Assembly: GCF_036967205.1 (NCBI RefSeq)
Contig: NZ_CP146022.1
Span: 7,626,001 to 7,690,000, forward strand
DNA: 64,000 nucleotides
Direction: 5' to 3'
Origin: Streptomyces sp. Q6
GTDB lineage: Bacteria > Actinomycetota > Actinomycetes > Streptomycetales > Streptomycetaceae
The notes under the pieces: generated by a model
Database searches by the model: none
What the model saw: only the letters and a program-made list of their open reading frames with translations
What the model was told of the DNA's origin: nothing
Position numbers and translations under genes: made by a program
Part shown: in pieces, positions 28,107 through 50,859 of the stretch
Layout of the letters: each line of letters starts with the position of its first letter
How positions within the stretch are numbered: the stretch's first letter is position 1

Positions 28107-31100
28107 GTGCGTCGCTCTGTGAGACCCAGCAGATCTCGGCACCCCTGGCAGCGGACCGCCGCCGGACTCGCGGCCGCCGCCCTGCTCGCCGTCGCCACCC
28201 CCGCGGCCCGCGCCGCCACCTCCGACGACACGGCGCCCGCGCCCAGCGCGCCGGGCGGCCGGTCCGTCACCGTCACCCTCGTCACCGGCGACGTCGTCGA
28301 CGCCCGCGTGGCCGCCGACGGCCGGGTCCTGTCCGCCGCCCCGCGCCCCGCCGACGGCACCGACCACCCCGCCGCCGTCTGGCAGGACGGCACCCGCACC
28401 TACGTCTTCCCGCAGGGCGTCGAGCGACTGGTGGACGCGGGCCTGGTCGACGCGGCCCTCTTCGACATCGGCCGGCTCGTCGCCGACGGGTACGACGACG
28501 CGCACACCGACACCGTGCCCCTCGTCGTCGCCTACGCGGGCGGCCGCGCGCCGCGCTCGGCGACCCCGGCACCAAGGTCACCGCGACCCTCGACTCGATC
28601 GGCGGCTCAGGGCTCGCCGTCACCAAGAAGTCCGCCGCCGACGCCTGGCGCGACCTCGCGCCGAAGGCCGGGAGCGCCCGCTCCGGCGGCGCCGTCACCA
28701 GGATCTGGCTCGACGCCAAGGTCCACGGCACCGCCGCCGGCGACCTCGGCGCCCCCACCGTCCCCTCACCGGCGCCACCGCCGCCCATCGCGCCGGACTC
28801 GACGGCTCCGGCGTCAAGGTCGCCGTCCTCGACACCGGCGTCGACGCCGACCACCCCGACCTGGCCGGCCGCATCGCCGAGACGAAGGTCTTCGTCACCG
28901 GGCAGGACAGCGAGGACCGCACCGGCCACGGCACCCACACCGCGTCCACCGTCGCCGGTACGGGCGCCGCCTCCGACGGCCGCTACGCCGGCATGGCACC
29001 CAAGGCCGACCTGCTCATCGGCAAGGTCCTCGGCGACGACGGCTCCGGCACCCTCAGCGGCATCGTCGACGGCATGGAGTGGGCCGTCGACCGCGGCGCG
29101 CGGGTCGTCTCCATGTCGCTCGGCGCCGACGGCGCCACGAGCTGCTCAGGACCCGACGTCGAGGCCGTGCAACGCCTCAGCGACAGAGCCCTGTTCGTCG
29201 TCGCGGCGGGCAACGCCTCGCTGCACGGCACCGTCTCCACCCCGGGCTGCGCGCCGAGCGCCCTCACGGTCGGCGCCCTCGACCGCGACAACGCCACGGC
29301 GCCCTTCTCCAGCCGCGGCCCCTCCGTCGACGGGATCTCGGCCAAGCCGGACCTCGCGTCCCAGGGCGTCGGCGTCGTCGCCGCACGGGCCGGCGGGCGT
29401 GGCGACCAGGCGTACCGGTCGATGTCCGGCACCTCGATGGCCACCCCGCACGTCGCGGGCGGCGCCGCGCTCCTCCTCCAGCAGCACCCGGGCCTCGCCC
29501 CGGCCCGGCTGAAGGCGCTCCTCACCTCGTCGGCCGCCGCCACCGACACCCCCGTGCTCGAACAGGGCGCGGGCCCGATGGACGTGGCCCGAGCGATCGA
29601 CGAGCCGGTGACGGCCGAACCCGCGCCGCTCCTCGGCGACTTCGCGTACCCGCAGGCCGGACACGCCTCCGTCGACAAGCCGGTCACCCTCACCAACACC
29701 TCGGGCAAGGACGTCACCCTCGACCTCGCCGTACGGGACGTGCGCGGCGACGACGGCTCCCGGCTCGACGGGTTCGCCGCCCCGGCCCACGACTCCGTCA
29801 CCGTCCCCGCGGGCGGCACCGCCGACGCCGTCCTGCGTATCGACCCGTCGGCCCACCTCGACGCGGGCGACTACGGCACCGTCACCGGGCGACTCGTCGC
29901 CACCGACGGCGACGGAACCCGCGTCGTCGTCCCGTTCGGCGTCCACATGGAGGTCCCGTCCGCCGACCTCACCGTCAAGGGCCTGGACCGGCACGGCGAC
30001 CCCGCCGCGACCCCGTCGGCGTTCCAGCTCTTCGACGACCACCGCGACACGGCCCGCCGCTACGTGCTCGGCTACCCGGACGCCGGCGCCACCACGATCC
30101 GGGTCCCGGTCGGCACCTACGCGCTCAGCGGTCTGATCATGACGCGTGACGCGGCCGGGAACGTGGGCAGCGTCGCCTCCGTCTCCCAGCTGTACGACCC
30201 CGAGGTGACCGTCTCCGGCGACACCACGGTCACCCTCGACGCGCGCGACGCGCGGCGGATCTCCTGGGACACCGACCGGCCCAGCCGGCCGAACGGCTTC
30301 GCGCTCGGTCTCGCCGTCGGCCTCGACGACAGCAAGCGCCTCAAGGCCGGCTACCTCACCTCCGTACCGTCGTACGTGAAGGCGCTGTACGCCCAGCCGG
30401 TCAGCGGCGCCGACGATCTGACCTTCCTCGCCTCCGCCCGGCAGAGCGCACCGCTCGCCGCGCTGACCACCTCCGGCGGCCGTACCCTGGACTCGCTGCC
30501 GGTGCAGAAGGCCACCGAGTTCGACGGTCAGGGGTCGGCCGAGGTCGTGCCCGTCGGCAAGGGCACCGACGCCGCCTTCGCGGCCCACGACCTCAAGGGG
30601 AAGATCGCCCTGGTCGACGCGGGTGTGGGCGGCGGCAACGCCTTCACGTGGAACACCGCCGCCGCGAAGGCCGGCGCCGCCGGAGTCCTCGCCGCGGTCC
30701 CCGACAGCCAGGGCCGCTTCCAGGTCACCGGGCCCGAAGGCGTCCCCCAGGCCACCATCACCTGGGCCGACTCCCTGGCCATCAAGGCGGAGGCGGAGCG
30801 GGGGACGGCGACCGTGTCCTGGTCCGGCACCGCGACCGCCCGCAGCCCGTACCTGTACAACCTCGCGTACACCGCGCACGGCGAGATCCGCCCCGGTGAA
30901 CAGCGCGTCCACGACCACGAGTTGGCCGTGACCGACGCGCGCTACCACGTGCAGGGCGCGGCCGACGCGACGTACTGGTCGGACGTCCAGGTCGGCCTCC
31001 CCGGCCTGGCCGCGGTCTGGGCGGGCGGCACCACGCTGCCGCTCCACGCACCGCAGCGCCGCACGGAGTTCTTCACCGCCACGCCCGACGGCGACGACGG

Positions 31101-31872
31101 CCCCGCCTGGACGACGCTGCTGCGCCGGGAGCTCGGCCCGTACGGCAGCACCGCGTACGACGGACCGCACACCGTTCCGGCGGGCCGCCGCACGGCCCTC
31201 TGGTACAAGTCCCCGTACGGGCCGGTCCGCAACACCTACGACCGTGCGCTGATGACCCGCGACAGCAACCGCCTCAGCTTCGCCCTGGCCCCGTTCGGCG
31301 ACGCGGGCGGCCACGACTCGACGCTCGCCGCCACCGACTACGGAACCCGGCAGCTCCTCGTCGACGGCGAACCGCGCAGCATGACCTCGGGCATGTTCAC
31401 GCTGCCGCAGGAGGACGCGGAGGTCACCTTCCGCCAGACCTGGCGCAGGCCCGCGTCGGCCGTCGACCGTACGGGCCTCGCCCACGCCACCGCCTGGACG
31501 TTCCACTCCTCGGCCGCCGACCAGGGCGCCCAACGGCTCCTGGTCCCGACCGTCGATGTGCCCTCCGACCTGCGCAACGCACGCCCCGCGGGCGAGGCGA
31601 CCAGCATCCGCGTCAGCGCCACGAGCGACGCCGCGGACGGCCCGGTCGTGCCGGCCGACGTGCGGGTGGAGTACGCGTACGGCGACCAGACGACGGTCGA
31701 CGCGGTCACGGACTGGCACACCGCCCGTGTCGTCCGGGCCGACGGCACGTGGACGGCGAAGCTGCCCGCGGACGCCCCGTCCGGCACGTTCGTCCACCTG
31801 CGCCTCGTCGTCGCCGACGGTCACGGCGCGAGCGTGGCGCAGACCCTGGTCCGCGCGTACGAAGTGCGGTGA
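28107..31872 (+). pseudogene. Secreted S8 (subtilisin-family) serine peptidase, frame broken twice
   Basis: From a GTG at 28107 (AGGAG upstream) the protein has a signal peptide (RTAAGLAAAALLAVATPAARA), then a propeptide-like region. The frame shifts by -1 near 28545-28557 and again near 28761-28765. Restoring one base at each place gives about 1255 aa with the full catalytic triad: Asp in VAVLDTGVD, His in DRTGHGTHTA, Ser in GTSMATPHVAGG. A PA-like insert (GKIALVDAGVGGGNAF) and beta-rich repeats follow. Both breaks lie in G/C-rich runs and the rest is intact, so assembly error is the better explanation. If real, secretion and protease would be uncoupled. A strong terminator follows the stop. 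Confidence 0.85.
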
Positions 31873-31879
31873 CACGCCG

Positions 31880-31917
31880 GTGGCCCGGTCCGGTGCTGTT
31901 CGGCCGGACCGGGCCAC
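31880..31917. terminator. Bidirectional terminator, 14-bp perfect stem
   Basis: 31880-31893 is the reverse complement of 31904-31917, with a 10-base loop. It sits between the convergent stops of the subtilase (31872) and the MHS transporter (31933). Confidence 0.8.
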
Positions 31918-31932
31918 GAGGGCGAGACGACG

Positions 31933-33285
31933 TCAGACCCGGGCGGGGACCCCTTGCGGCAGCCCTGCCGACGGCTCGGCGGCGACGCGTCGCAGGTGGT
32001 AGACGCGCAGCCGCAGCGTGCACCAGATGCCGATCACGGAGACGGCCATCAGCGCGAGGGCCGGCGGCCAGTAGGCGCCGCCCGCGAGCGAGGAGAGCCA
32101 GACCGCGGTGACCGGGGCGAACCCCGCGAAGATCAGGTTGCAGACCTGGTAGGAGAGCGAGATGCCGGTGTAGCGGACGTGCGGGGCGAAGCCGTCGGCG
32201 AGGATCGCGGCGATCGGCCCGTACAGCGCCGACATCACGAACCGCATGGCCAGCATCGTCAGGTAGATCAGCACGACGTTGCCGCCGCCCAGGACCATGA
32301 ACTGCGGGAGCGAGAGGAACACGACGCCCGCGAGCCCTCCGACGACGACTTTGTGCGCGCCCACGCGGTCGCCGAGCAGCGCGAGGAACGGGGTGACGAC
32401 GAGTTCCAGGAAGGCGGCCAGGGAGAGCCCGTTGAGCAGCATCGACTCGGACAGGTGCAGTTCGTCGGTGCCGTACGACAGGAGGTAGCTGGTCACGACG
32501 TAGTAGCCGCCGGTGGCCGTGGCCAGCGCGAAGACGCCGACGAGAACCGTCTTCCAGTCCTTGTGCAGGACCTCCGCCACGGGCAGCCGGCCGGGCGATC
32601 CGCCCTTCTCGGCCTCCGCGTGGATGTCCTCCATCACCGGGGAGTCCTCCAGCTTGGTGCGCACCACCAGGCCGATGACGACGAGGACCGCCGAGGCGAG
32701 GAACGGCACGCGCCACCCCCAGCTGTTGAACGCCTCGTCACCGAAGAGGTTCATGAGGCTGAACATGCCGGTGGACAACAGGGCTCCGACGGACGAGCCG
32801 AGCTGGGCGAAGGAGCCGAAGAAGGTCGTCCGGTTCTTGGGCGCGTTCTCCACGGCGATCAGGACGGCGCCGCCCCACTCGCCGCCGATGGCGATGCCCT
32901 GGATGAGGCGCAGCGTGATCAGCAGGATCGGGGAGAGGACGCCGACCTGGTCGTACGTGGGCAGGAGACCGATCGCGAACGAGGCGATGCCCATCATCAG
33001 CAGCGTGATGACGAGGGTCTTCTTACGGCCGACACGGTCGCCGATGTGGCCGAAGACGATGCCGCCGAGCGGGCGCAGCAGGAAGCCGACCGCGAAGGTG
33101 GCGAAGGAGGAGATCGTCTTCAGCGCCGTCGGCATGTCGGCCGGGAAGAACACGTCGTTGAACACGATCGCCGCGGCGGTGGCGAAGGCGTAGAAGTCGT
33201 ACCACTCGATGGACGTGCCGGCCAGGGCGGCCAGGGCTGTCCGCAACGGGCTCCGGGCTGGGGGAGGGGTGGTGCGGTCCGGCAT
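31933..33285 (-). CDS. MFS transporter, metabolite:H+ symporter (MHS) family
   Basis: A 450-aa inner-membrane protein with 12 spans. GTSIEWYDFYAFATAAAIVF near the N-terminus, FLLRPLGGIVFGHIGDRVGRKKTL and RLIQGIAIGGEWGGAVL are signature motifs of the MHS group (ShiA, KgtP, ProP relatives), which import organic acids or zwitterions with protons. GGAGG precedes the ATG. It follows an amidohydrolase on the same strand by 62 bp and probably imports its substrate. Confidence 0.9.
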   Translation of the reverse strand: MPDRTTPPPARSPLRTALAALAGTSIEWYDFYAFATAAAIVFNDVFFPADMPTALKTISSFATFAVGFLLRPLGGIVFGHIGDRVGRKKTLVITLLMMGIASFAIGLLPTYDQVGVLSPILLITLRLIQGIAIGGEWGGAVLIAVENAPKNRTTFFGSFAQLGSSVGALLSTGMFSLMNLFGDEAFNSWGWRVPFLASAVLVVIGLVVRTKLEDSPVMEDIHAEAEKGGSPGRLPVAEVLHKDWKTVLVGVFALATATGGYYVVTSYLLSYGTDELHLSESMLLNGLSLAAFLELVVTPFLALLGDRVGAHKVVVGGLAGVVFLSLPQFMVLGGGNVVLIYLTMLAMRFVMSALYGPIAAILADGFAPHVRYTGISLSYQVCNLIFAGFAPVTAVWLSSLAGGAYWPPALALMAVSVIGIWCTLRLRVYHLRRVAAEPSAGLPQGVPARV

Positions 33286-33347
33286 GGGGACCTCCGGGAC
33301 GAAGGAGACGGGGACGAACGAGCGGGTGAGGCGGCGGGATCGCGCGG

Positions 33348-35003: not shown

Positions 35004-35073
35004 GGCAGGGCCTGCTTTCGACCAGGGAGGTTCAGGTGAGCGCCGACAGACGATCGGCTCGCCGAACCATAAA

Positions 35074-35107
35074 GAGACAAACGCCTGATTGGCTAGAGGG
35101 TTGTCTC
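35074..35107. promoter_or_regulatory. Inverted repeat in the promoter of the amidohydrolase/MHS unit
   Basis: GAGACAA and TTGTCTC are perfect 7-bp arms separated by 20 bp, in an AT-richer patch about 70 bp upstream of the amidohydrolase start. Arms lie 27 bp apart start to start, so a protein would contact them on roughly opposite helix faces or as an oligomer. The neighbouring two-module Lrp regulator is the obvious candidate. Confidence 0.45.
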
Positions 35108-35245
35108 AAGAATGTTTGTAAAGTCGAAAGGGCGCTTCGGTTACGGATCGACTGCCGTAGCTGCGGGTGTCGGTATCGATGTCGGTGTCGCTCGGTCGGC
35201 GCTGGTCCTCTCCCCGGTCGTGCTCGGTCCGTGCCCGGCCCGTCC

Positions 35246-36154: not shown

Positions 36155-36374
36155 GTCTTGTCCCCATCCGTGTTCGGTGTTCGCCCTGCGGTGAGCGGGC
36201 CGGGCGCCCGCTCATTGTCGGTCAGCCGGTCAAGGCGCCCACGGGGTGGCCCATGTTCCGTCGATGACCGTCGCCAACGATCGTCTCATCCGGCCTGGAC
36301 AAGTTGTGCAGTCGAAACGTAAGTTCTGATCCTGAACAGCGATCGAATCATTCACCACCTTCCGGGAGGATGCT

Positions 36375-38150: not shown

Positions 38151-39751
38151 CTACACCCCGGTGACCTTGCCGCTCGACGACACGTCATAGACCAGCGTCA
38201 CCGTGCGCCGCCCACCGGGCGGGAGCGTCAGGTCCCAGCGGGCGACGCCGTCGGCGTCGACCGTGTCCGGCGCCGGGGAGCACGCCTCCTTGCGGAGCCG
38301 GACCTCGACCTGTGACACCTCGGAGACCGGGATCCGCTCCCGCAGCGTGACGACCCGCTCGCCGGTCTCGTCCGGGGCGGAGAACCGGGAGAGGTGCAGC
38401 CGGACCGTGCGCGTGGTCACCGTGCGATGGGTGAGGGCCGACGTGTCGCGCGACTCGTCCGTCTCGCGCAGCACCCGGTACGTGTCCGCGCTGCCGAACG
38501 CCAGCTCGCCCGGGGCGCCCGGCGCGGTGAAGGCGAGCGTGCCGCGGCCGGTGAACCCGCTGCCCCTGACCAGGTCCACGGGCCCGGCGAGCAGCGCGTG
38601 CCCCGCGGTGTTCGTGAACCGGACGACTTCCGTGACCAGCGGGGAGAGTTCGGGCGCGCAGGAGTACTCGCTCCGCGTCGCGCACGTCGTCGTGGTGAGC
38701 GGCACGCGGTGGGCGCGTCCGTCACCGGGCACGCGGACCGGCGCGGGGGCGTGCAGGACGCGCACCTCGCCGCCGTCGTCCACGCCCGGCAGGCCGACGA
38801 CCTGGGCCGGGCCCACGTCCGTGATGTCCTCCTCGCGCACCTCGACGTCGACGGTCCGGCGTTCCTCGGCCGAACGGTCGCGCAGGGTCAGCCGGTCCTC
38901 GACGAGGCGCGGCGGCTTCGTGGACGCCGCGGACCGGGCCGTCGAGAGCGTCAGATCCACGTCGGACCAGTCCTCGCCGGTGCGCTGCCACACCACCGCG
39001 TCGGTGCGCAGGGTCAGTTCGCCGTCCGGGCCGAGCGCGGCGCGGTAGGCGGGGCGCCACACGGCGCACGGTGTGACGTGGGTCAGGCGCAGCGCGGCCC
39101 GGCCCGCCGTGCGTGCCCGCAGCGTCAGCTCGATGTGGGCGGTCAGGGACGGCGGCTCGTGCTCGGCGTAGTGCAACGCGTGCCGCGCCTGCCCCAGTTC
39201 GTCGGTGACGGCCGCCAACCGGACCTGCGTGGCGTGCAGTTCGTCCTCGACCGTGTCGCGCTCGGCGTTCACCCGGTCCAACTCGGCCGCCCAGCGCTCC
39301 GGTTCGGACTCCCCGTATCCGGCGCCCTCGCCGATCTCCCGCAGCAGGTCGGCGGCCAGCCTGCCGAGCGCGTCGAGACGGGCGCGGAGCCGGTCGAGCC
39401 GCTGCGCCAGGGCCCGCTCCTCCTCTTCCAGGGCGTGGGCGCGGTGGCGCAGCGGGGAGTCCTCGTCGCCCGGCGGGCGTGGAGCGGGGGGCGTCCAGGC
39501 CCGCACCAGGCGTACGTCGAGGACGGTGGCGTCCGGGTCGCCGGTGAACTCGGCGTGCAGCGTGCGGTCCACGGCGAGCGCGCCGACCGGGCCCAGGAGC
39601 AGCCGCTGGACACCGGCCGCCACCTCCACGGTCGCGGTGCGCTCGATGTGGGCGCGGTCCTCCAGACAGGTCACGGCGGTCACGGGCAGCGGCGTCGCGG
39701 CGGGGGCCGCTCGGCGGGGGCGTCCTCGGAGGGCGCGGCTGGTGTCGTCAT
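38151..39751 (-). CDS. MuiA-like DUF4139 protein (shorter paralogue), N-terminal frame probably broken
   Basis: The main frame is open from a GTG at 39683 (510 aa). However, a better start is the ATG at 39749-39751, seven bases after the upstream stop and preceded by GGAGGAG; its frame (MTTPAAPSEDAPAERPPP) joins the main frame only if one base is added near 39695-39706. The body has a DUF4140-like N-terminal domain, a long helical/coiled stretch at about 80-160 (HALEEEERALAQRLDRLRAR), then DUF4139 (VTPCAVWRPAYRAAL, WQRTGEDWSDVDLTLSTA). The name comes from a 'mucoidy inhibitor' family; biochemical function is unknown. Confidence 0.82.
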
Positions 39752-39758
39752 GGGGGTG

Positions 39759-41792
39759 TCAGCTCCTCCGGTTGCCGCCGGCGAGGGCCTTGGCGGCCGG
39801 GACGCGGATCTCGTAGCCGCCGTCGAGGGCGACCGTGCCGCCCGCGGGCAGCTCCACCCGCCACAGACGGGTGCCGGGGACGTGCGGCTCGGGCCCGTCG
39901 CCGGCCTCGGGGCGTACCCAGTCGGCACGCTCCTCGATGCGCACGTCGGCGTCCGACGTCACGGGGACGCGCTCGCGCACCTCGACGGTGACCGGCCGGG
40001 CGAGGCGATTGGCCAGCTCGACGTGGACGCGGTGGTCGAGGACCGTGGTGGTGTTGCGCAGCCCCGCCGTCGACTCCCGCAGGTCGGTGCGGCGGGCGGC
40101 GCGGATCGACTCGGCGGGCCCGAGCCCCACACGGCCGGTGCCGCCGGGGGCGAGCGTGGGCAGCGCCGCGGTCGGCAGGTGCTCGCCGTCGACCGTGAGG
40201 TCCACGGGGCCCGCCAGGAGCGCCTGATCCGTGGTGTTGGAGACCAGCAGCGTCGCGAACACGGTCGGGTCGACCGACGGCACGCAGACGTACTCGGTGC
40301 GCAGCGCCACCGGGAGCTCCGTCACGGTGACGGTGTGCCAGGTGCCGTCGGACGGGATGTCGGCGGGGGCCGAGGCGTCGAAGCGGTGGTCGAACGAACC
40401 GGCCGACTCGCGCGGCCGCACCGCGTGTCCGGGCAGCGGCAGCGAGGCCACCGAATCCGCGCGGCGACGGTACTCGGAGGCGACCGCGTCGGTGGTCGAC
40501 CCCGGCAGCAGCACACCGCGTCGCGCGCCGTGCTCCTCGGGCCCGGCCAGGACCAGGTCGGCGTAGTCGAGTTCGGCGGTGCTCGGCCGCGGCGGGCCCG
40601 GCACAGGCGGCGGTGGCGGGGAGGCGCCGCCGCCGCGGGGGCCGGGGCCGGTGCGCTGTCCAGGGCGGCGGCGCTGAAGCCACGGGTCGCCCGAGGACGG
40701 ACCGCGCCCGGGGCCGCCGGTACCGCACCCCGTAGGACGGCGGAGCGGACTGGGGCGCGGGCGCGCTCGGCGGCGGTGGCGGCGGCGGTGGCGCGCCCCC
40801 GCGACGAACCCCGCTCCCACCAGCGTCTCGTTCGGGGCCTCCCGGACAGCGGCGGCAGGTCGCGGCCCCGCCGCGTCGTACCCGCTGAACAGGTCGGCGA
40901 GCCCCGCCGGAGGCTCGCGCCAGCCGGACGGTTCGGGCGTGGACCTGCGGCGCCCGATCCGCAGCGAGCGGAGCTTCGGCACGCCGGTGGGCCGCCGCAG
41001 ATCGGCCGTCGACAGGGCGAGGTGGACGCCGGTCCAGTCCTCGCCGGTGCGCTGAGCCACCGAGGCGCGCAGCACGAGCCGCGCGTCACCATCCCCTTGA
41101 CGGTGCGTCAGCCGGTAGGCGGGGGCCCAGACCGCGCCCGGCACGCGGTACTCCACCTCGACCACCACCTCCGCGCCTCCCGCCGCCTCACCCTCCACGG
41201 TGAGGTCGGCCGCGAGGGTGGTGCGGATCGCGGACGACGCGGCGTCCGTGGACGCCCGCTCCAGCCGGTCGGTCGCGACGTCGAGCTCGTGCGCGATCCG
41301 CAGGAGTTCCTCGTCCAGCGCGGCGAGCCCCGCGTGCAACACCGTCAGCCGCTCGTCGACGAACCCCGTGAGGGCGAGCCACGCGTCGACCGGCGTACGG
41401 CGATGCGTGGGGTCGTCGCGCTTGCGGGGCGGCGGGACGGGCCGCAGCGCCGCGATCTCCGCGACGCGCCGCGCCTGCCGGTCCCTGCGCGCCTGCGCCG
41501 CGCCCTGCTCCGCCTGCCACCGCTCGACCGCCCGGTACAACGCGTCGCGGTCCTCCGGCTCCGTCGGCTCCGCCTCGACGACCGGCCGCGCCGCGCCGAC
41601 CCGCAGGCCCGGCGCGTCAAGGACCCGGGCGTTCAGGGAGTCCGGCTCCAGCGACCGGGGCAGTCCGCTCACCCGGACGCGGCCGTCGGGCGGCACGACG
41701 CCGCGGGCACGCCGCCGGCAGACCGCGCCCCGCGCGTACACGACCACCGATGTGAGCGTCGACTCCCACGGCCCTGCCACCGCGTCCGTCAT
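39759..41792 (-). CDS. MuiA-like DUF4139 protein (longer paralogue)
   Basis: A 677-aa frame. It has a DUF4140-like N-terminus (SVVVYARGAVCRRRARG, VRVSGLPRSLEPDSLNARV), a helical region, DUF4139 features (VPGAVWAPAYRLTHRQG, QRTGEDWTGVHLALSTADLR) and a C-terminal beta-domain ending LWRVELPAGGTVALDGGYEIRV. Residues around 330-410 are an Arg/Gly-rich stretch that looks translated out of frame. The neighbouring frame gives a Pro-rich linker (APPPPPPPPSAPAPQSAPP) instead, so three -1 errors summing to one codon may lie between 40610 and 40800. It is followed directly by its shorter paralogue. Confidence 0.83.
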   Translation of the reverse strand: MTDAVAGPWESTLTSVVVYARGAVCRRRARGVVPPDGRVRVSGLPRSLEPDSLNARVLDAPGLRVGAARPVVEAEPTEPEDRDALYRAVERWQAEQGAAQARRDRQARRVAEIAALRPVPPPRKRDDPTHRRTPVDAWLALTGFVDERLTVLHAGLAALDEELLRIAHELDVATDRLERASTDAASSAIRTTLAADLTVEGEAAGGAEVVVEVEYRVPGAVWAPAYRLTHRQGDGDARLVLRASVAQRTGEDWTGVHLALSTADLRRPTGVPKLRSLRIGRRRSTPEPSGWREPPAGLADLFSGYDAAGPRPAAAVREAPNETLVGAGFVAGARHRRRHRRRARPRPSPLRRPTGCGTGGPGRGPSSGDPWLQRRRPGQRTGPGPRGGGASPPPPPVPGPPRPSTAELDYADLVLAGPEEHGARRGVLLPGSTTDAVASEYRRRADSVASLPLPGHAVRPRESAGSFDHRFDASAPADIPSDGTWHTVTVTELPVALRTEYVCVPSVDPTVFATLLVSNTTDQALLAGPVDLTVDGEHLPTAALPTLAPGGTGRVGLGPAESIRAARRTDLRESTAGLRNTTTVLDHRVHVELANRLARPVTVEVRERVPVTSDADVRIEERADWVRPEAGDGPEPHVPGTRLWRVELPAGGTVALDGGYEIRVPAAKALAGGNRRS
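39763..39769 (-). promoter_or_regulatory. Ribosome binding site that decides the start of the shorter MuiA-like gene
   Basis: GGAGGAG on the minus strand, 11 bases before the ATG at 39751. It has no other start to serve, which supports the ATG over the downstream GTG at 39683. Confidence 0.6.
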
Positions 41793-41887: not shown

Positions 41888-42549
41888 ATGGAAGATCGAT
41901 CCGGTCTGCTCAGGGCAGTCGACGCAGCGTTCGCCGTCACCGGCGCGGACACCCCGCCCTGGCCCGATCCGCACGACGGCGGTCCGGGCCGCGACGAGGA
42001 GTACTCGCGGTGCCTGGACCCCGGCAAGTACCGCATCCTCGCGGCACGCGCCGAGGCGTGGGCGACGGTGCTGTCCGCACGCGGCCTCGCCGACCGGGAG
42101 CCGGTCGCCGACGGCGCGGCGGGCCCCCGGTCTGGCGACGCCCTCCCGAGGTCGAGGTCGCCGACGCGATCGTGCTGCGCCCCCGGCGGCCGGACGCCGT
42201 GCCGCTCGTCATCGGCTACGGCGCCATCGACGACGTATCCCGCACGGTCCTGGTGCTCGGCGTGGGAGAACCCGCCGTGCCCCTGGGGATCGTGCCGGAC
42301 TGCGGCTGCGACGCGTGCGACGACGGCTCCGCCGGAATCCTGGAGATGGTCGACGAGAGCGTGCTCGCCGTGATCACCGGAGACGTCGTCCACATCGACG
42401 ACGGGCGGGGCGGGGAGCTGATCGACACACAGGAGAGCCGGTCGGCGAGCAACTGGCGCGGCGCGGGCCGGTCCGACGAGGAGGTGATCGCCGAGGCACG
42501 CGCCGGGCGTTCGCCGTTCGACGTCGTGCGGGGAGAGCCCTGGGACTGA
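41888..42549 (+). pseudogene. DUF6226-like protein, frame broken once
   Basis: From the ATG at 41888 the first ~80 residues (LLRAVDAAFAVTGADTPPWPDPHD, LDPGKYRILAARAEAW) lie in one frame. The rest (VWRRPPEVEVADAIVLRPRRP, VPLVIGYGAIDDVSRTVLVLGVGEPAVPLGIVPDCGCDACDDGS) lies in the -1 frame. Adding one C to the C-run at 42124-42128 joins them (GPPVWRRPPEVEV), giving about 220 aa. This matches the small actinobacterial DUF6226 family as I remember it. The function is unknown. The break is probably an assembly error. Confidence 0.68.
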
Positions 42550-42661: not shown

Positions 42662-43450
42662 ATGTCGTCCCGCCCGTCCGTCCTGGCCGCACTGACCTCA
42701 GGGTTGCGCGGCGGATCGATCGAGGTCGTCGACCTCACGTCGCCGCTCTCCTCGACCACGCCCGTCATCCAACTCCCGCCGCAGTTCGGCCAGACGGCCT
42801 CCTTCGAACTGGAGGAGATCAGCCGGTACGACGACCGGGGCCCGGCCTGGTACTGGAACAACTTCCGCAGCGGCGAGCACACCGGCACCCACTTCGACGC
42901 CCCCAACCACTGGGTCACCGGCAAGGCGCTCGGTGACGTCGCCTCCGTCCCCGCGCGGCAGTTGATCGCCCCGGCGGTCGTGCTCGACTTCTCCGCCGAG
43001 GCCGCCGCCGACCCCGACTTCCTCGTCGAGATCGACCACGTGAAGGCGTGGGAGGACGCCAACGGGCCACTCCCTGACGGCGGTTGGCTGCTGCTGCGGA
43101 CCGGGTGGGACGCGCGCTCGCACGCGCAGGAGCCGTTCGTCAACGCCGACGAGAACGGTCCGCACACCCCCGGCCTCTCGCCCGAGTGCGCGCGCTGGGT
43201 GGCGCAGGAGACGCCGGTGATCGGGCTCGGCGTGGAGACGGTGGGCACCGACGCGGGCGCCGCGCACTCCTTCGACCCGGCGTTCCCCTGCCACTCGTAC
43301 CTGATGGGCAGCGGCAAGTACGGGCTGACGCAGTTGCGGAACCTCGGGCGGCTGCCGGCGACCGGCGCCGTCGTCGTCGCGGGACCGCTGCCCATCGTCA
43401 CCGGCTCGGGGGCGCCCGCGCGGATCCTCGCCCTCGTGGAGCGGGCGTGA
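42662..43450 (+). CDS. Cyclase-family metal hydrolase (kynurenine formamidase-like)
   Basis: A 262-aa protein of the cyclase/arylformamidase fold. The metal motif SGEHTGTHFDAPNHW lies at about 76-90, with VDLTSPLSSTTPV near the start and VIGLGVETVGTDAG later. AGGAGG lies seven bases before the ATG. Family members hydrolyse aryl formamides or isatin, or cyclise small acids. It overlaps the ThDP enzyme by GTGA. There is no kynureninase or tryptophan dioxygenase in the window, so kynurenine is not implied. Confidence 0.88.
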   Translation: MSSRPSVLAALTSGLRGGSIEVVDLTSPLSSTTPVIQLPPQFGQTASFELEEISRYDDRGPAWYWNNFRSGEHTGTHFDAPNHWVTGKALGDVASVPARQLIAPAVVLDFSAEAAADPDFLVEIDHVKAWEDANGPLPDGGWLLLRTGWDARSHAQEPFVNADENGPHTPGLSPECARWVAQETPVIGLGVETVGTDAGAAHSFDPAFPCHSYLMGSGKYGLTQLRNLGRLPATGAVVVAGPLPIVTGSGAPARILALVERA

Positions 43451-45089
43451 AGGTCGCGGAGGCCGTCGGGCGGGCGCTCGCCGCGTCCGGCGTCGACCAT
43501 GTCTTCGGCGTCGTCGGCTCCGGCAACTTCCACGTCACGAACGCCCTGGTCGCGGCCGGCAGCCGGTTCGTCGCCGCACGCCACGAAGGCGGCGCCGCCA
43601 CCATGGCCGACGCGTACGCCCGCATGAGCGGAACCGTCGCCGCGCTCAGCGTGCACCAGGGCTGCGGCCTGACCAACGCCCTCACCGGCATCGCCGAGGC
43701 GGCCAAGAGCCGCACGCCGCTGCTCGTCCTCGCGGCCGAGGCGACGTCACCCGCGTCCAACTTCGCCGTCGACCAGGACGCGTTGGCGCGCGCGGTCGGC
43801 GCGGTCCCGCTGCGCGTGACGTCCGCGGCGGACGCGGTCGGGCAGGCCCGCGCCGCCGTCCGCCACGCCCTGTGCGCACGCCGGACCGTCCTGCTCAACC
43901 TCCCGCTGGACGTCCAGGCCGAGGACGTGCCCGACGGCGTGCCCGACCACGTCGCGCCGCCCGACCGGCCGGCCGCCGTGGTGCCGGAGCCGGGCGACAT
44001 CGCGACGCTGACCGGGCTGCTCGACGCCGCGCGGCGGCCCGTCTTCGTCGCGGGCCGGGGCGCCCGCACGCCCGGCGCCAGGGACGCGCTCGCCGCCCTC
44101 GCCGACCGGTACGGCGCGCTCCTCGCCACCTCGGCCGTCGCGCGCGGCCTCTTCGCCGGCGACCCTGGTCGCTCGACGTCTCCGGCGGCTTCTCCTCACC
44201 CCTGGCCGCCGAACTGATCCGCGGCGCCGACCTCGTCGTCGGCTGGGGCTGCGCGCTGACCATGTGGACGACGCGGCACGGCCGGCTGATCGGCCCGGAC
44301 GCACGCGTCGTACAGGTCGACGACGACGCGTCGGCGCTCGGCGTCCACCGCCCCCTGGACCTCGGCGTCACGGGCGATGTCGCCGTCACCGCGCGGCGCG
44401 CCCTGGAGGCCGCGGCCGCCGGCAGCGCGACCGGCTACCGCACCGCGGACGTCCGGAAGGACATCGCCGAGCGGGTGCGCCTGCGCGATGTCCCGTACGA
44501 CGACGAGAGCACCGGCGAGCGCATCGACCCGCGGACCCTGAGCATCGCCCTCGACGACCTCCTCCCGGCCGAGCGGGTCATCGGTGTCGACTCCGGCAAC
44601 TTCATGGGCCACCCGACCATGTACCTGTCGGTCCCGGACCACGAAGGGCTCTGCTTCACGCAGGCGTTCCAGTCGATCGGGCTGGGGCTCGCCACGGCCG
44701 TCGGGGCGGCCCTGGCCCGGCCCGACCGGCTGCCCGTCGCCGCGCTCGGCGACGGCGGCGCCCTGATGAGCGTCGCCGAACTCGACACGGTCCGCCGCCT
44801 CGCCCTGCCGATGGTGGTCGTCGTCTACAACGACGACGCCTACGGGGCCGAGGTCCACCACTTCGGCCCCGACGGACACGCCCTCGACATCGTCGAGTTC
44901 CCGCCCACGGACATCGCCACCGTCGCCCGGGGCCACGGCTTCGAGGCCGTGACCGTACGAACTCCCGTGGATCTCACGGGAGTCGCGGACTGGCTCGCGG
45001 GGACGCGTGCCCGGCCGCTGCTCATCGACGCCAAGGTGACCCGGGACCACGGCGCCTGGTGGCTGGAGGAGGCCTTCCGCGGCCACTGA
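43447..45089 (+). pseudogene. Thiamine-diphosphate-dependent enzyme (acetolactate synthase/decarboxylase type), frame broken once
   Basis: Starts at a GTG overlapping the cyclase stop. The N-terminal Pyr domain has GVDHVFGVVGSGNFHVTNAL and the catalytic Glu in ARHEGGAATMADAYAR. The C-terminal PP domain has GDGGALMSVAELDTV with NDDAYG, the Mg-ThDP motif. The frame shifts at 44163-44165: adding one C to GACCC restores AGDPWSLDVSGGFSSPLAAEL and gives about 547 aa. All cofactor motifs are intact, so an assembly error is likely. It should cleave or form a C-C bond next to a carbonyl; the substrate is unknown and may be the product of the cyclase-family partner. Confidence 0.85.
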
Positions 45090-45124
45090 CGCGCGGACGC
45101 CCGCGCACCCCGTGGCCGCGGACG

Positions 45125-46327
45125 TCAGGCCCGCGCGAGGACCACGGCGGCGTTGTGCCCCCGAAGCCGAAGGACGTGCTGAGCGCGAGGGCCGAGGGTG
45201 CTGCCGGGCGGCCCCCGCGACCACGTCGATGCCGAAGGCCGGGTCGGCCTCGCGCAGCCCGGCGACCGGTGGCACCACGTCGTCGCGCAGCGCCAGGACC
45301 GTCAGCGCGGCCTCGATCGCACCGGCCGCGCCCAAGCTGTGCCCCAGCGCCCCCTTCGCGGAGGTGACGGGCGGCCGGTGCGGGAGCACGCGGGACAGGA
45401 GCGTCGCCTCCATCGCGTCGCCGCGCGGGGTCGACGTGCCGTGCGCGTTGACGTGGTCCACGTCCTGCGGCGCGATGCCGGCGTCGGCGAGCGCGGCCCG
45501 CACCGCCCGCTCGCCCTGACGCCCTTCGGGGTGCGGCGCCACCAGGTGATGGGCGTCCGTACTGGCGCCGTAGCCGACGAAGTGCGCGAGGTGCGGCGCC
45601 GAACGGGCCGCCGCGTGCGCGGGCCGCTCCAGGACGAGGGCGCCCGCCCCCTCCGCGATGACGAAGCCGTCGCGGTCCACGTCGAAGGGGCGCGAACCCC
45701 GGTCCGACAGCGCCCCCAGCTGGCTGAAGCCGGCGGTGATGAGCGGGGTGACGGCCGCCTCCGCTCCGCAGACGATCGCGATGTCGCACTGCCCCGAGTT
45801 GATCAGCAGCCGGGCCGTGCCGAGAGCGTCGGAACCGGCCGCGCACGCCGTCATGACACACAAGGAAGGCCCGGTCACGCCCAGCTGGAGGGTGAGCGCG
45901 GCCGCCGCCATGTTCGGCATGTAGCCGGTGAGGAAGTACGGGGAGACGCTCGTCGCCCCGGAGCGCGCGAGCCGCTCCGTGGCCGTGTCCAGCGCGCGCA
46001 TCCCGCCGATCCCGGTGCCGAGGACCACGCCGACACGGGAGGCGTCCCAGTCGGCGGGGGAGAGCTTCGCCCCGTCGAGGGCCTCGCCCACCGCGGTCAG
46101 CGCCAGCCGGGCCACCGGGTCCAGATGCGCCACGCCGCGCCGCCCCGGGGCAGCTCGTCCACGCCGTCGACCCGGCAGCTCAGGGACACCGGCAGCTCGC
46201 GCAGCGCCGGATCGCGCCGGGCGGTGGCCTGCCCCGACCGCACCGCGGCCCAGGTGGCGGGCGCGTCCCGGCCGGCGGGGGTGACCAGGCCGATGCCGGT
46301 CACCGTCACCGATCCGTCTCGGGTCAC
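45125..46327 (-). pseudogene. Beta-ketoacyl-[ACP] synthase (FabF-like), frame broken three times
   Basis: The GTG at 46327 overlaps the ACP stop (GTGA). The N-terminus VTVTGIGLVTPAGRDAPATWAAV runs to about 46147, where the frame shifts. The long middle holds the catalytic Cys in CVMTACAAGSDALG and the first His in NAHGTSTPRGD. Two more shifts near 45205 and 45160 are needed to read LALSTSFGFGGHNAAVVLARA, with the second catalytic His. Each is fixed by adding one G or C to a run. The restored protein is about 401 aa with the complete Cys-His-His triad. It is probably functional and condenses acyl and malonyl units on the adjacent ACP. Confidence 0.85.
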
Positions 46328-46581
46328 CGGGCCCGCCGCGCGTCGACGCGGGCCGCGAAGTCGGCGAGGGTCAGCTCGCGCAGCTCGTCCTCGGAGACGG
46401 TGACGCCCAGCTCGTCCTTGAGCGTGACGGCCATCTCCACCACCATCAGCGAGTCGATGAGCAGCTCGGTCATCCGGGCGTCGGACCTGACCAGCGCCGG
46501 GTCCACCTCGAACCGGTCGACGAGCAGGCCGGTGACGAGTTCGGTGCCGGGGGAAACGGGGGGTGTCGCGGAGGTACTCAT
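46324..46581 (-). CDS. Acyl carrier protein
   Basis: An 85-aa acidic helical protein with the phosphopantetheine site in LLIDSLMVVEMAV (Ser about 44), a slight variant of the usual DSL(D/A) motif. It starts the leftward ACP-ketosynthase unit and overlaps the ketosynthase start. Because it is unlinked to fabD/fabH it is probably specialised rather than the primary fatty-acid ACP. It lies divergent to a PlsC-like acyltransferase that could use its acyl chain. Confidence 0.9.
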   Translation of the reverse strand: MSTSATPPVSPGTELVTGLLVDRFEVDPALVRSDARMTELLIDSLMVVEMAVTLKDELGVTVSEDELRELTLADFAARVDARRAR

Positions 46582-46655
46582 GGCGGGATGACGCCTTCCT
46601 GTGACGGGGAGATGCGGGACGGTACAGGGACGGACAATCTAGACAGACCACCTCA

Positions 46656-47447
46656 ATGGCACTTTTAGCCTTGCGGTCTCCCGTTTTCAGCAGAAAGTGG
46701 GACCTTGTGATCAAGGAGAACTCCGCAGAGCGGGACAAGGCCCGGAGCGACGCCGTCGACGGCGTGCTCGGCCGGCTGGCCGACGGATACTTCCGCGTCG
46801 AGGTCTCCGGGACCGAGCACATCCCCGCGACAGGCCCGGCGCTGCTCGTGTCCAACCATTCGGGGGCGTGGGGGCTCGACGGCCTCGTCCTCCACAAACT
46901 CCTGCGGGAGCGCACGGCACGCTCGGTCCACTTCTACGTGTCGCCGCTCCTGTACCGGGTCCCGGCGCTCGCGGCGTACGTCAGCCGCCACGGCGCCTTC
47001 ACCGACGACCCCACGCTGGGCCACGACCTCCTCGCGCGGGGCGAACTCGTCGGTGTCTTCCCGGAAGGCACCGACGGCGTCGGCAAGGACTTCTCGCGGC
47101 GCTACCGGCTGCGGCCCTTCAGCCCCGGCTTCGCCGCCACCGCGGTGCTGACCGGCGCGCCGATCGTCCCGGTGTCCGTGGTGGGCGCCGAGGAGACGTA
47201 CCCGAAGCTCGGCGAGATCAGGGCGCTGGCCCGCCGTTTCGACCTGCCGTACTTCCCCGTCACGACGCTGCTGCCGCTGCCGGCGAAATGGCTCGTCACG
47301 GTCGGCGAGCCGATTCCCGCGCCGCCCGCACCGGCGTCCTTCGCGCGCCGCGCCGCGGTGACGCGACGGCTGTGCGACGAGGCGTGGTTCACCGTGCAGG
47401 GCATGATCGACCGCGATCTGCGGCGCCGCACGACCCCGTTCTGGTAG
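46656..47447 (+). CDS. 1-acylglycerol-3-phosphate acyltransferase-like protein (PlsC family)
   Basis: Up to 263 aa. The acyltransferase motifs are present: SNHSGAWGLDG (His-X4-Asp-like), LVGVFPEGTDGVGKDF and the hydrophobic APIVPVSVVGAEETY. It esterifies a fatty acyl group, perhaps from the divergent ACP. Start is uncertain: ATG at 46656 has no clear ribosome site and puts a TTA at codon 4, while GTG at 46707 (VIKENSAERD) has GTGGG upstream and excludes it. A strong terminator follows the stop. Confidence 0.82.
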   Translation: MALLALRSPVFSRKWDLVIKENSAERDKARSDAVDGVLGRLADGYFRVEVSGTEHIPATGPALLVSNHSGAWGLDGLVLHKLLRERTARSVHFYVSPLLYRVPALAAYVSRHGAFTDDPTLGHDLLARGELVGVFPEGTDGVGKDFSRRYRLRPFSPGFAATAVLTGAPIVPVSVVGAEETYPKLGEIRALARRFDLPYFPVTTLLPLPAKWLVTVGEPIPAPPAPASFARRAAVTRRLCDEAWFTVQGMIDRDLRRRTTPFW

Positions 47448-47451
47448 GACC

Positions 47452-47486
47452 CCTGGCCCCCGTCCGCCGGACGGACGGGGGCCAGG
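47452..47486. terminator. Terminator, 15-bp perfect stem
   Basis: 47452-47466 is the reverse complement of 47472-47486 with a 5-base loop (CCGGA), four bases after the acyltransferase stop. Confidence 0.85.
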
Positions 47487-47538
47487 GGCCTTCGGGGCCT
47501 TCGGGGCCTTCGGGGCCTTCAGGGCCTTCAGGGCCGGA
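47485..47538. repeat. 9-bp tandem repeat between convergent genes
   Basis: Four perfect copies of GGGGCCTTC, one AGGGCCTTC and a partial sixth unit, directly after the acyltransferase terminator and ending just before the stop of the P450-like gene. Non-coding by position. Confidence 0.85.
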
Positions 47539-47541
47539 CTC

Positions 47542-48977
47542 TCAATGCGCCAGCCACTCGGCGGCCTTGCGGGCGTCGGCGGCAGCGCGCGTGCAGCGTT
47601 CGGCGTGGGCGAGCAGCGTCATACGGCACTGCTCGCCGAAGGCGTCGTGGTCCCAGCCCGGCTGCCGCGCGCACTGCGCGAGGCGGCGCGCGTGCTCCTG
47701 GAGGCTCCGGGCGCTCGCCGACACGAGCGCCGCGTAGTGCGGGGCACCCCGCCCGGCGGCAGGCCCGGCCGTCGCGCCCGGCAGACCGGGCCCGGAACCT
47801 TCGCCGGGGACGCCGCGCCGGTCTCGGCCAGGGCGATGGTGAGCGACGCCGCGGGCAGCGTGCCCGGCAGCGCCTCGGGGTCCAGGCGCGAGCCGCAAAG
47901 GACCGGCTCGGCGCGCCGCGTCAGGGCCCGCAGGAGTTCGACGGCGGCGGACACGGCGAGCTCGGCGGCGGCGCACGGTGCGGGCGCCGCGCACAGCGCT
48001 GTCGACGGGTCCTCCGATGCCGGGACGAGCCCCTCGTCCTCGTCCAGGTCGCGGAGCCAGGCGGTCGCGCACAGGATCTCCGTGCCCGTCTCGACGGTCA
48101 TGTCCCGCCACGCGAACGGCGCCGTCACCTCGTGCACCGTGGCGGCCAGGGGCGGATAGCGGCGCAGCGCCTCGGTGACCGTCAGCTCGATGTGGTCCGC
48201 TCCGGGCAGCGGCGGCCTGACCGTCAGGAGCGCCAGGGCCTGCGGCGCCGTCTCCGTGAGCGCGCGCGTGACGATCTCCAGGGCGTGCTCGACGACGGCG
48301 TCGTCCCCGATGGCCGGGGGAGTGGCGTGCGTGTCGTGGACGTACGGCTCGACGCGGCGGCGCAACGCCGCAGCGCGGTCGGCGTGTTCGTCCGGCTCGG
48401 TCGACCGGAGCGTGGCCTCCAGGATGTCGCCGATGAGCGGGTCGTCGGCGGCGGCGTCGCCGAGGACGAGGCGCCGGGCGAGCCGCCGGGTGACGGCGCA
48501 CCAGTCGTCGCGGGACACGCTCCCGTCGGCCTGCCGCGCGGCGAGCAGCTCACGGGCCTCTTCGACGGCGAGGGAGCGCACGCGCGGCAGCAGGGCGCGC
48601 AACGGCAGCTCGGGCGCGGCATGCGGGCTCAGCGTCGAGCGGCGCCCCTCGTCGCTGAGGGCGGTGACCCGGCCCCGCGCCCCCGCCTCCTCGGCCCGCC
48701 CGACGAGCGTGAACGCGTCGTCCACGCTGAACGGCATCAGGAACGTCCCGAACGCCGTGCGCAGCCGCGTCGGCCGCCCGTCCGCCGCGCGCCGGATCTG
48801 CGCCAGCCCCTGCCGCGTCAGCTGCCGCCGCGTGAAGGACGTCAGCCCGAGGGCGCGGGCCGGGGCGTCGATCCAGGACCACCGCTGGGCCGCGAAGGCC
48901 GCGCTGACCAGCGCGTTCTCCAGAGGCCACGCCGTGGCGGGACGGCGGGGGGCGGTGGTGGTGTCACCGGCGTTCAT
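47542..48977 (-). pseudogene. Cytochrome P450-like protein with degenerate heme loop, frame broken once
   Basis: From ATG 48977 the frame is open to about 47807, then shifts by -1; adding one C there (SPGEGSGPGLPG) gives about 478 aa. The K-helix ExxR is present as TEALRRYPPLAATVHEV, and the segment MTVETGTEILCATAWL fits a P450 beta-strand/meander region. The heme loop reads ALCAAPAPCAAAELAVSA: the Cys and trailing LA are kept, but the glycines and Phe of FxxGxxxCxG are lost, and the I-helix Ala-Gly-x-x-Thr is not seen. A C-terminal ~80-residue helical extension follows. It may not be an active monooxygenase. Confidence 0.65.
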
Positions 48978-48994
48978 CGATGGTCTCCGTCCGG

Positions 48995-50409
48995 TCATTT
49001 GTCGAGCAGTTGGTAGGGCTGGTTGGAGACGATCTCGCCCTCGTAGGCGGCGAGCAGGTCGTTGACCCGGCCGCGGTGGGGCAGCGTGTCGCCGCTCAGG
49101 GTGCCCGCGTACGCCTGCGGGGCGTGCGACAGCGGGTAGTCGTACCGCTCGTCCAGCCAGGTCAGTTCGAGCCAGCCGTCGGGGACGTCGCGTGCGGCGG
49201 CGGGGCCCCGCCCGTCGAGTCCGGGGATCACGTCGTGCTTGTTGACGAGGCTCACGATCTGCACCGACGGGTCCACGGGCCGCTTGTTGTCGATCGGCGA
49301 ACCGACGGTGACCACGTGCGTCAGCCGGTACGTCGTCACGACGTCCAGGTCGCACGCGAGGTTCATGGCGGTGATCCCGCCGAGGCTGTGTCCCACGACC
49401 AGCAGCTCTGAGCCGGCCGGGACCCCGGCCCGCGTCAGCAGGTTCTTGACCGCCCGCGTGTACGTCGTGTCGGTGCGCAGTACGCCGTCGAACGCGCCGA
49501 CGAGGTCCTGCGGGGTGCTGTTGCTCACCCGGCCGAAACTCGTGCCCGGCAGTAGCAGCACGTGCCGTGTGGCGCCGTCCGCGCACGCGACCCTGCGCAA
49601 CAGGGCGAGACCGTGGTTGCCGAGCGCGGAGATGTCGTCGAGGTAGCTGACGATGTCGTTGGCCGAGCGGGTCAGGACCTGGGCGAGCATCGCGTCGGGC
49701 GCGACCCGCTCGGCCCGTCCGGGACCCGGGTTGAAGTGCCGGATGAGCCCGGCGGGCAGACCGAAGAACGGCTCCGTGGTGGGAACTCCGCCGCCCAGCG
49801 TCACCCACGCGAAGCTGTCGTTGGTCGGGTTCTCGTCGAGGAGCCCGTTCAGCGCGAGCAGCTCCATGATCACCGGGCTGACGGTGGTCAGGGTGCGGGT
49901 GACTCCCATCAGGTCGACCAGCTTGCGGGCGGTGCGCAGCGCCTCGACGCGGCGGCCGCCGATCACAGCCGCCGTGAGCCGGCGGGCCAGCGGATCCGCC
50001 AGGTTCGGGTGCTCGCGGGCCGCGGCCTCGATGCGCAGCGCGAACGCGTCGACCGCCATCGCCACGCAGGCGGGCCGCCGGCGGGCCATCGCGCCCAGCG
50101 ACCGGAACGTCTCGCCGACGAGCCCGCCGTTCGCGGCGAGGCCGAGACCGGCGGGGTTCGTCAGCGCGCGGGCGGCGGCGACCGCGGCGCCGAACCCCAC
50201 CCCGGGCGTCGCACCGCTTCGAGCCCCACCCGCCAGCTGGAGGCGGCCGCCGTGAGTTCGGCGCCGGTCTGCCGGGCGGCGAGCGCGGCGTCGGCGAGCA
50301 GCACCGACGCCGCGATCATCAACTCCGTCTCGGTCCCGGCTTCGACCCCGGCCCCGGTCCCGTGCCTGGTCCCGGTCTCGGGTTCCGCCTCGACTGTCTG
50401 GGCTGCCAT
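48995..50409 (-). pseudogene. Lipase-like alpha/beta hydrolase, frame broken once
   Basis: ATG 50409 has GAGGTGG upstream. The first ~70 residues (MAAQTVEAEPETG, LADAALAARQTGAELTAAAS) are in one frame. After about 50200 the frame shifts; adding one G (PGVGFGAAVAAA) joins them to give about 471 aa. The C-terminal half is an alpha/beta hydrolase: oxyanion strand HVLLLPGTSFGR, nucleophile elbow VVGHSLGGITAMNLA, candidate Asp in NKHDVIPG and His in LSHAPQAY. The N-terminal ~200 residues are helical and unassigned. It lies 17 bp upstream of the P450-like gene, likely one unit. Confidence 0.75.
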
Positions 50410-50859
50410 CCGGCCACCTCGTCCCGTACGTGCTCACGTGTTCGGTCTTGGCCCGCCCCAGAGCAGTAGACCGTGGGCACCGTGACGCGGCAGGGCTGTG
50501 CGGGCCACTCGGGTGACTCACGGACAGTGAGCGCCGGCCCGGCGCACGCCCTCCCGAAGGGCGCCGGCCGCGGGGGCGCCGTCCACGCCTCCGCCGCGAG
50601 CGAGGGAACTGTGGCGAACCGCTTCCGAACCCCGATGACCGGTACCAGGAGGGAAGGGCGCACAGACCGCCCGCGCATGCCGCAGGCGCGTCAGCGGGCA
50701 CGGCCCCGACGCGCTCCCCGGCGGCGACAACAGCGAACGCGCCCTGCTCACCCTGCGCGCCTTCGACGCCATGCTGCGCGGCGAGGACGCCGACCACGTC
50801 GCGGCCCTGTGGGCACCAACGAACTCGGCGGCCTCTCCCGTCCCCCCGGCGGGCAGTCC
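50410..50859. other. Intergenic region between the lipase-like and MerR genes
   Basis: 450 bp with no gene I can support. Short frames on both strands are Arg/Pro/Gly-rich, lack ribosome sites and match no family. A leftward promoter for the lipase-like/P450-like pair is expected near 50420-50480. The segment 50700-50860 could be a decayed remnant of another gene (it contains a DNSERALLTLRAFDAMLRGEDADHV-like fragment split here into DNSERALLT and LRAFDAMLRG on the + strand), but this is weak. Confidence 0.35.

What the first reader, a model, noticed from the sequence alone, without database searches (positions are those of the whole stretch)
28545..50410. Cluster of single-base deletions in homopolymer runs breaks at least eight genes
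Between 28.5 and 50.2 kb, frame breaks occur in the subtilase (2), the shorter MuiA-like gene (1), the longer MuiA-like linker (probably 3, cancelling), the DUF6226-like gene (1), the ThDP enzyme (1), the ketosynthase (3), the P450-like gene (1) and the lipase-like gene (1). Every one is a -1 shift repaired by adding a G or C to a run of G/C, and each repair restores a known motif. None was found in 1-28 kb or 50.4-64 kb. This points to local assembly errors rather than gene decay, and matters for any annotation of this window.
Basis: partly seen in the sequence, partly recalled or inferred. Interest (0 to 1): 0.75.

Follow-up and report, generated by a model that had tools for sequence, protein, structure and literature searches.

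The report
Genome-wide sequencing errors mimic broken genes
The broken genes seen in this stretch of a Streptomyces-like chromosome are very probably one-base losses in the published sequence, not real gene damage, and they are not local: the same errors turn up across the genome wherever the DNA is extremely rich in G and C, even inside core genes.

Summary
The frame breaks are real features of the sequence record. I confirm nine breaks of one-base-loss type in six genes (subtilase 2, DUF6226 1, ThDP enzyme 1, ketosynthase 3, 'P450-like' 1, lipase-like 1). The break claimed in the shorter MuiA-like gene is not supported; those in the longer MuiA-like linker are undecided. Strict calls are absent from 1-28 and 50.5-64 kb. 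But the cluster is not local. In 57 sampled 20-kb stretches of the same genome a strict test finds 55 deletion-type and 7 insertion-type breaks; 74 loci of relatives (1.0 Mb) give 4 and 5. The deletion rate climbs from 1.6 per 100 kb where local G+C is under 76% to 32 above it (39 in 241 bins; relatives 1 in 231). hemA (sole copy), dnaX and infB are split the same way while relatives carry them whole, so gene decay is very unlikely. Best explanation: G/C-run lengths under-called in a long-read assembly and left uncorrected where G+C is extreme. Platform and polishing history are inferred; no reads were available.

The parts
28119..31872 (+). subtilase (S8) gene, broken twice: frame changes at about 28535-28577 and 28726-28776
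   Evidence: model intervals 28535-28558 and 28760-28776; 11 of 11 relative proteins switch frame; Peptidase_S8 in the downstream piece
41888..42549 (+). DUF6226 gene, one frame break at about 42117-42150
   Evidence: both pieces match consecutive parts of PF19736; model interval
43447..45089 (+). ThDP-dependent enzyme, one frame break at about 44158-44173
   Evidence: 8 of 8 relative genomes change frame at 44160-44166; TPP_enzyme_N/M and M/C on the two sides; downstream piece resembles solved ThDP enzymes of acetolactate synthase and benzoylformate decarboxylase type
45125..46344 (-). beta-ketoacyl synthase gene, three frame breaks at about 46139-46151, 45192-45198 and 45157-45160
   Evidence: 3 of 3 relatives for the first; the two C-terminal ones cleanly in 2 of 3 relatives; ketoacyl-synt starts at profile position 85 in the open piece
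46345..46582 (-). acyl carrier protein gene next to the ketosynthase, not broken; the model's switch at 46341 is this gene junction
   Evidence: PP-binding PF00550 E 1.9e-07; model
   Evidence: 4 of 5 relatives change frame; Pfam gives 0 families for the pieces and for a relative's open frame
48995..50577 (-). lipase-like (Lipase_3) gene, one frame break at about 50197-50221; upstream end taken from the clean homologous match of L085
   Evidence: main match stops at 50206 in 5 of 5 relatives; N-terminal part in another frame; Lipase_3
38151..39683 (-). shorter MuiA-like gene (DUF4140-DUF4139), no break supported
   Evidence: both domains complete in one frame
39759..41792 (-). longer MuiA-like gene (DUF4140-DUF4139), linker at about 40.60-40.82 kb undecided
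   Evidence: one frame in the relatives' full-length matches shown; weak lean to another frame inside the linker

Best explanation
The frame breaks are consensus errors of the sequence record: single bases missing at short G/C runs (typically four left) in an assembly closed with long reads. They occur over the whole genome but mostly where local G+C exceeds about 76%, where correction of the draft evidently failed, most simply because accurate short reads are scarce in such DNA. Shown: deletion bias, run context, G+C dependence, genome-wide spread, split core genes, intact relatives. Inferred: that it is error at all (no reads), long-read origin, and failed polishing as the cause of the G+C threshold.
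For: Genome-wide: 55 deletion-type vs 7 insertion-type strict breaks in 57 stretches of 20 kb (binomial 2e-10); the 37 stretches not used in training give 28 vs 4. Controls: 20 stretches of four complete relatives 1 vs 0, 15 Streptomyces/Streptacidiphilus loci 1 vs 1, 14 homologue loci 0 vs 2, 25 core-gene loci 2 vs 2: together 4 vs 5 in 1003.6 kb; deletions differ at 2e-11, insertions do not (0.78). G+C: 39 of 55 breaks in the 241 of 2280 500-base bins with G+C of 0.76 or more; relatives 0 in 189 such bins and 1 in 42 more. Simulated one-base losses are caught about equally from 0.66 to 0.78 (0.43-0.60 strict; only 8 trials above 0.78, 5 caught). Window: 3.16 strict deletion-type breaks expected from local G+C at 28-50.5 kb, 4 seen (plus 1 insertion-type call); 1.01 and 0.55 expected on the flanks, 0 seen; 8 of 9 confirmed breaks at local G+C of 0.76 or more. 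Runs: 40 of 51 well-placed breaks hold a G/C run of 4 or more against 38% of GC-matched positions (6e-9). G/C runs of 6 or more are depleted in the GC-rich bins (21 in 120.5 kb vs 55 in 94.5 kb of relatives, 7e-7), not elsewhere (248 in 1019.5 kb vs 215 in 786 kb, 0.22). Core genes: the only hemA lies in two frames, in one frame in 7 of 7 relatives; dnaX in two frames against 6 of 9 relative loci compared; infB in two frames, while 8 of 8 relatives whose locus covers it have it in one. Published passages read: one-base-short G/C runs of 4-10 bases (PMC11649196), deletions mostly after runs of four to five (PMC12007338).
Against: No reads and no second assembly of this strain are held, so error is inferred. 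The model is not clean: L047 9531 is an OppB/OppC gene junction, 4 of 55 calls have a gain below 10, and its strict call inside infB (L159 1410) is false, since intact relatives give switches at the same place; infB's true frame change, near base 475 of L159, was found by homology alone. Of 15 sampled places whose two pieces were searched in NCBIfam, 6 show one family on both sides, 2 are ambiguous, 1 is the junction and 6 match nothing. Run depletion is not seen against the 15 Streptomyces/Streptacidiphilus loci (3 in 19 kb, as low as here), nor in the window's own GC-rich bins (5 in 12.5 kb). One window break lies at local G+C 0.746. rho shows no break. A truncated IF-2 or DnaX might still work, and a 5-aminolevulinate-synthase-like gene exists below the family cut-off, so no single core gene is proof.
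Confidence: 0.92

Rival explanations
1. Real gene decay: the region 28.5-50.2 kb is a dying gene cluster that has collected frameshifts.
For: The broken genes in the window look accessory by name (protease, lipase, ketosynthase, DUF6226), and no reads exist here.
Against: The same breaks occur over the whole genome and in hemA, dnaX and infB; the rate follows local G+C; coding statistics stay strong on both sides of the breaks; the local number is what G+C predicts.
Confidence: 0.03
2. A real genome-wide contraction of G/C runs in this strain (mutator lineage) that happened recently.
For: Would give deletion bias at G/C runs everywhere, with coding statistics still intact.
Against: Core genes are split; slippage should favour the longest runs, whereas 0 of 51 placed breaks sit at a run of 6 or more and 33 of 51 at a longest run of exactly 4; a G+C threshold is not expected of slippage.
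Confidence: 0.03
3. Programmed frameshifting or phase-variable tracts in these genes.
For: Breaks lie at G/C runs; dnaX is a frameshifting gene in some bacteria (recalled).
Against: Tracts are short; relatives have the same genes in one frame at the same place; unrelated genes are hit alike.
Confidence: 0.01
4. A variant of the best explanation: plain long-read-only homopolymer error with no polishing effect.
For: CP074402.1 (L034) shows 6 deletion-type and 1 insertion-type strict breaks in 21 kb; its sequencing method was not looked up.
Against: In L034 the breaks sit at ordinary G+C (0.71-0.73), in this genome mostly above 0.76, which asks for a G+C-dependent second step.
Confidence: 0.25

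Closest known systems
Gene-fragmenting indel errors of long-read assemblies (Kastor paper PMC12007338, passages read; Watson and Warr 2019, seen only as cited there)
   Same: One-base deletions at short homopolymers make false pseudogenes; most follow runs of four to five
   Different: Here mostly confined to local G+C above about 76%
One-base-short G/C homopolymers of 4-10 bases in PacBio-derived assemblies of a high-G+C bacterium (PMC11649196, passages read)
   Same: G/C runs one base short
   Different: There 3, 5 and 8 differences per genome; here, by my own rough extrapolation, several hundred
Nocardiopsis eucommiae CP074402.1, stretch L034
   Same: Same deletion-biased break signature
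   Different: Not tied to extreme local G+C

Membership tests
Consensus homopolymer-deletion error of a long-read assembly | excess of one-base deletions over insertions, above background | tested here: met
   55 vs 7, 2e-10; relatives 4 vs 5
Consensus homopolymer-deletion error of a long-read assembly | sites at homopolymer (G/C) runs | tested here: met
   40 of 51 at runs of 4 or more vs 38% expected
Consensus homopolymer-deletion error of a long-read assembly | long runs depleted where errors are dense | tested here: inconclusive
   met against all relatives pooled (7e-7), not against the 15 Streptomyces/Streptacidiphilus loci, nor in the window itself
Consensus homopolymer-deletion error of a long-read assembly | hits genes regardless of need, including core ones | tested here: met
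   hemA, dnaX, infB split; rho not
Consensus homopolymer-deletion error of a long-read assembly | absent at the same genes in relatives | tested here: met
   the DUF6226 gene had no relative to compare, and L086 shows no switch at the P450-like gene
Consensus homopolymer-deletion error of a long-read assembly | raw or accurate reads disagree with the record | not testable with these tools
   no reads held
Pseudogene cluster (gene decay) | confined to dispensable genes | tested here: not met
Pseudogene cluster (gene decay) | local concentration beyond the genome's background | tested here: not met
   4 strict deletion-type breaks seen, 3.16 expected from local G+C
Phase-variable or programmed frameshift site | long tract, or the same split kept in relatives | tested here: not met
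   0 of 51 at runs of 6 or more; relatives in one frame

The most novel reading that the evidence does not exclude
The record is right: this strain is a recent hypermutator in which short G/C runs in the most GC-rich DNA have lost a base at hundreds of places, with core genes rescued by ribosomal or transcriptional slippage.
Probability: 0.02. Interest if true: 0.85.

Novelty: not a real feature. Interest (0 to 1): 0.2.

Why it matters
As biology it is ordinary: the six genes are very likely whole in the living strain. As data quality it matters. A species-representative genome rated 99.99% complete shows false-looking frame breaks at about one per 20 kb by a test that caught about half of simulated ones, concentrated in its most GC-rich genes. 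Pseudogene counts, gene-loss claims and cluster predictions drawn from it will be wrong in a biased way. The local G+C dependence also gives a read-free test for this kind of error in other high-GC genomes.

Tried and rejected
Rejected: a local assembly fault (the number is what local G+C predicts from elsewhere in the genome); gene decay (core genes); detection bias with G+C (simulation); model false positives in GC-rich DNA as the main cause (1 deletion-type call in 231 such bins of relatives). The model's switch at 46341 is the ACP-ketosynthase junction, and its single insertion-type call at 45201 is the net of the two nearby one-base losses. My first reading of infB, from the model call at L159 1410 and the comparison, was wrong; the check showed that call to be false and placed the frame change near base 475 of L159. 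Confidence was lowered from 0.94 to 0.92 for that and for the run-depletion results against. A 20-kb-scale correlation of G+C with break count was weak (rho 0.28, p 0.035); the signal is at 0.1-1 kb scale. Broad homopolymer counts were uninformative until split by local G+C. TIGR01821 was searched to see whether a 5-aminolevulinate synthase could replace hemA: best match 305.6 bits, under the cut-off of 338.55, with one TGA inside, so a bypass is not excluded. Literature searches with 0 papers; one search listed 8 of 15 papers and was not pursued; passages of PMC11261834 were seen and not used. PDB search of a relative of the 'P450-like' gene gave 2 weak hits (E 0.13 and 0.44). A plasmid-collection search of the region gave 12 records with partial matches of low identity and was not followed.

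Full report
What was asked. The window is 7626001-7690000 of the 8.57-Mb main contig of a two-contig, 8.95-Mb genome rated 99.99% complete. Of 29 loci found by one window protein 14 are Streptomyces; that the genome is a Streptomyces is inferred.

The observation. I built a three-periodic coding model from 171 long open frames of 20 control stretches and let it follow frames through the DNA, charging each frame switch. Switches at gene overlaps were told apart from switches where both frames stay open at least 90 bases (the strict set). Proteins of relatives were laid on the window and pieces were searched against Pfam. Nine breaks in six genes are confirmed: subtilase (2), DUF6226 gene (1), ThDP enzyme (1), ketosynthase (3), the gene called P450-like (1) and the lipase-like gene (1). 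The tenth, 39700 in the shorter MuiA-like gene, is not supported: its two domains are complete in one frame. The cancelling breaks in the longer MuiA-like linker are undecided. For the P450-like gene one relative of five (L086) shows no switch, and no search supports the name P450. The DUF6226 gene rests on Pfam and coding statistics alone, as no fetched relative matched it.

Not local. The strict test on 57 stretches of 20 kb from the same genome gave 55 deletion-type and 7 insertion-type breaks; 28 of 57 stretches hold at least one deletion-type break and one holds six. The 37 stretches not used in training give 28 and 4. Relatives: 20 stretches of four complete genomes 1 and 0; 15 loci of 14 Streptomyces and one Streptacidiphilus 1 and 1, 14 homologue loci 0 and 2; 25 loci around hemA, dnaX and infB 2 and 2. 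Together 4 and 5 in 1003.6 kb: insertion-type calls are at background in this genome, deletion-type calls far above it (2e-11). Of the 29 loci, 28 gave 3 and 2, and one, CP074402.1, gave 6 and 1.

Tied to G+C. In 500-base bins the deletion-type rate is 0, 0, 0.6, 1.4, 1.2 and 4.3 per 100 kb in the classes below 0.76, then 22, 41 and 133 per 100 kb in the classes 0.76-0.78, 0.78-0.80 and above: 39 breaks in 241 bins against 16 in 2039. Relatives have 231 bins of 0.76 or more with one deletion-type call. Simulated one-base losses are caught at 0.29 to 0.60 in the classes with at least 17 trials and without a steep rise at 0.76; above 0.78 there were only 8 trials (5 caught). From these rates the window should hold 1.01, 3.16 and 0.55 strict deletion-type breaks in 1-28, 28-50.5 and 50.5-64 kb; it holds 0, 4 and 0, plus one insertion-type call that is the net of two losses. 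That is why the breaks look clustered.

Run context. Of the 51 breaks placed with a gain of at least 10 (4 of 55 dropped), 33 have a longest nearby G/C run of exactly four and 7 of five; GC-matched positions would give 14.4 and 4.7. In GC-rich bins this genome has 21 G/C runs of six or more in 120.5 kb, relatives 55 in 94.5 kb; in other bins there is no difference. Against this, the 15 loci used as reference have only 3 in 19 kb, and the window's own GC-rich bins have 5 in 12.5 kb, so depletion of long runs is weak support.

Core genes. Of 15 sampled places whose two pieces were searched in NCBIfam, 6 match successive parts of one family (a mannosyltransferase, afsR, hemA, a FakA/YloV-type gene, a SigK-type sigma factor, a LivG-type transporter part), 2 are ambiguous, 1 is a junction of two genes and 6 match nothing. 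hemA is the only match of its family in the genome and lies in two frames; 7 of 7 relatives carry it in one. I then chose infB, dnaX and rho as genes with GC-rich segments. dnaX is split: the proteins of 6 of 9 relative loci match both parts in different frames, the other 3 show one part only. infB is split too: its first 90 or so residues lie in one frame and the rest in another, with the change near base 475 of L159 (local G+C 0.77), while 8 of 8 relatives whose locus covers the gene have it in one frame; the ninth locus starts inside the gene. The model's own call further inside infB is false. rho shows no break. That these genes are needed is established knowledge, not a result here. Each has a caveat: a shortened IF-2 or DnaX may work, dnaX is frameshifted on purpose in some bacteria (recalled), and hemA might be bypassed. 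Together, in one genome, they make decay very unlikely.

Mechanism. One-base losses at short homopolymers are a known error of long-read assemblies (passages of PMC12007338; of PMC11649196). What this genome adds is the steep dependence on G+C. The simplest reading is a draft corrected with reads that cover poorly above about 76% G+C. This step is inference: neither the platform nor the polishing of this record was seen. The contrast with CP074402.1, whose breaks lie at 0.71-0.73, fits two different error histories.

Size of the problem. 55 strict deletion-type breaks in 1.14 Mb, found with about half sensitivity, point to several hundred over the genome; this is an extrapolation, and some of the 55 are false.

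Verdict. The six genes should be treated as intact until reads say otherwise.

Noticed in passing
window 45125-50577: Ketosynthase, acyl carrier protein, PlsC-type acyltransferase, an unclassified protein and a lipase-like protein form a block with counterparts, in part or whole, in five fetched relatives (G081, G078, G012, G083, G074), perhaps a lipid-making cluster; the unclassified protein matches no Pfam family even in a relative.
   Followed up: partly
L034 (CP074402.1), whole 21-kb stretch: Nocardiopsis eucommiae record has 6 deletion-type and 1 insertion-type strict breaks in 21 kb, at ordinary G+C, a probable second error-laden record.
   Followed up: partly
L156 (G000:C1:7488816-7489877): 5-aminolevulinate-synthase-like gene with one TGA inside the match, below the family cut-off.
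   Followed up: no
L048 about 12085-13427: PcaR/PcaU-type regulator pieces match overlapping profile parts, as if two IclR-type units were fused or doubled.
   Followed up: no
window 38151-41792: Two DUF4140-DUF4139 (MuiA-like) genes side by side; several relatives match both.
   Followed up: no
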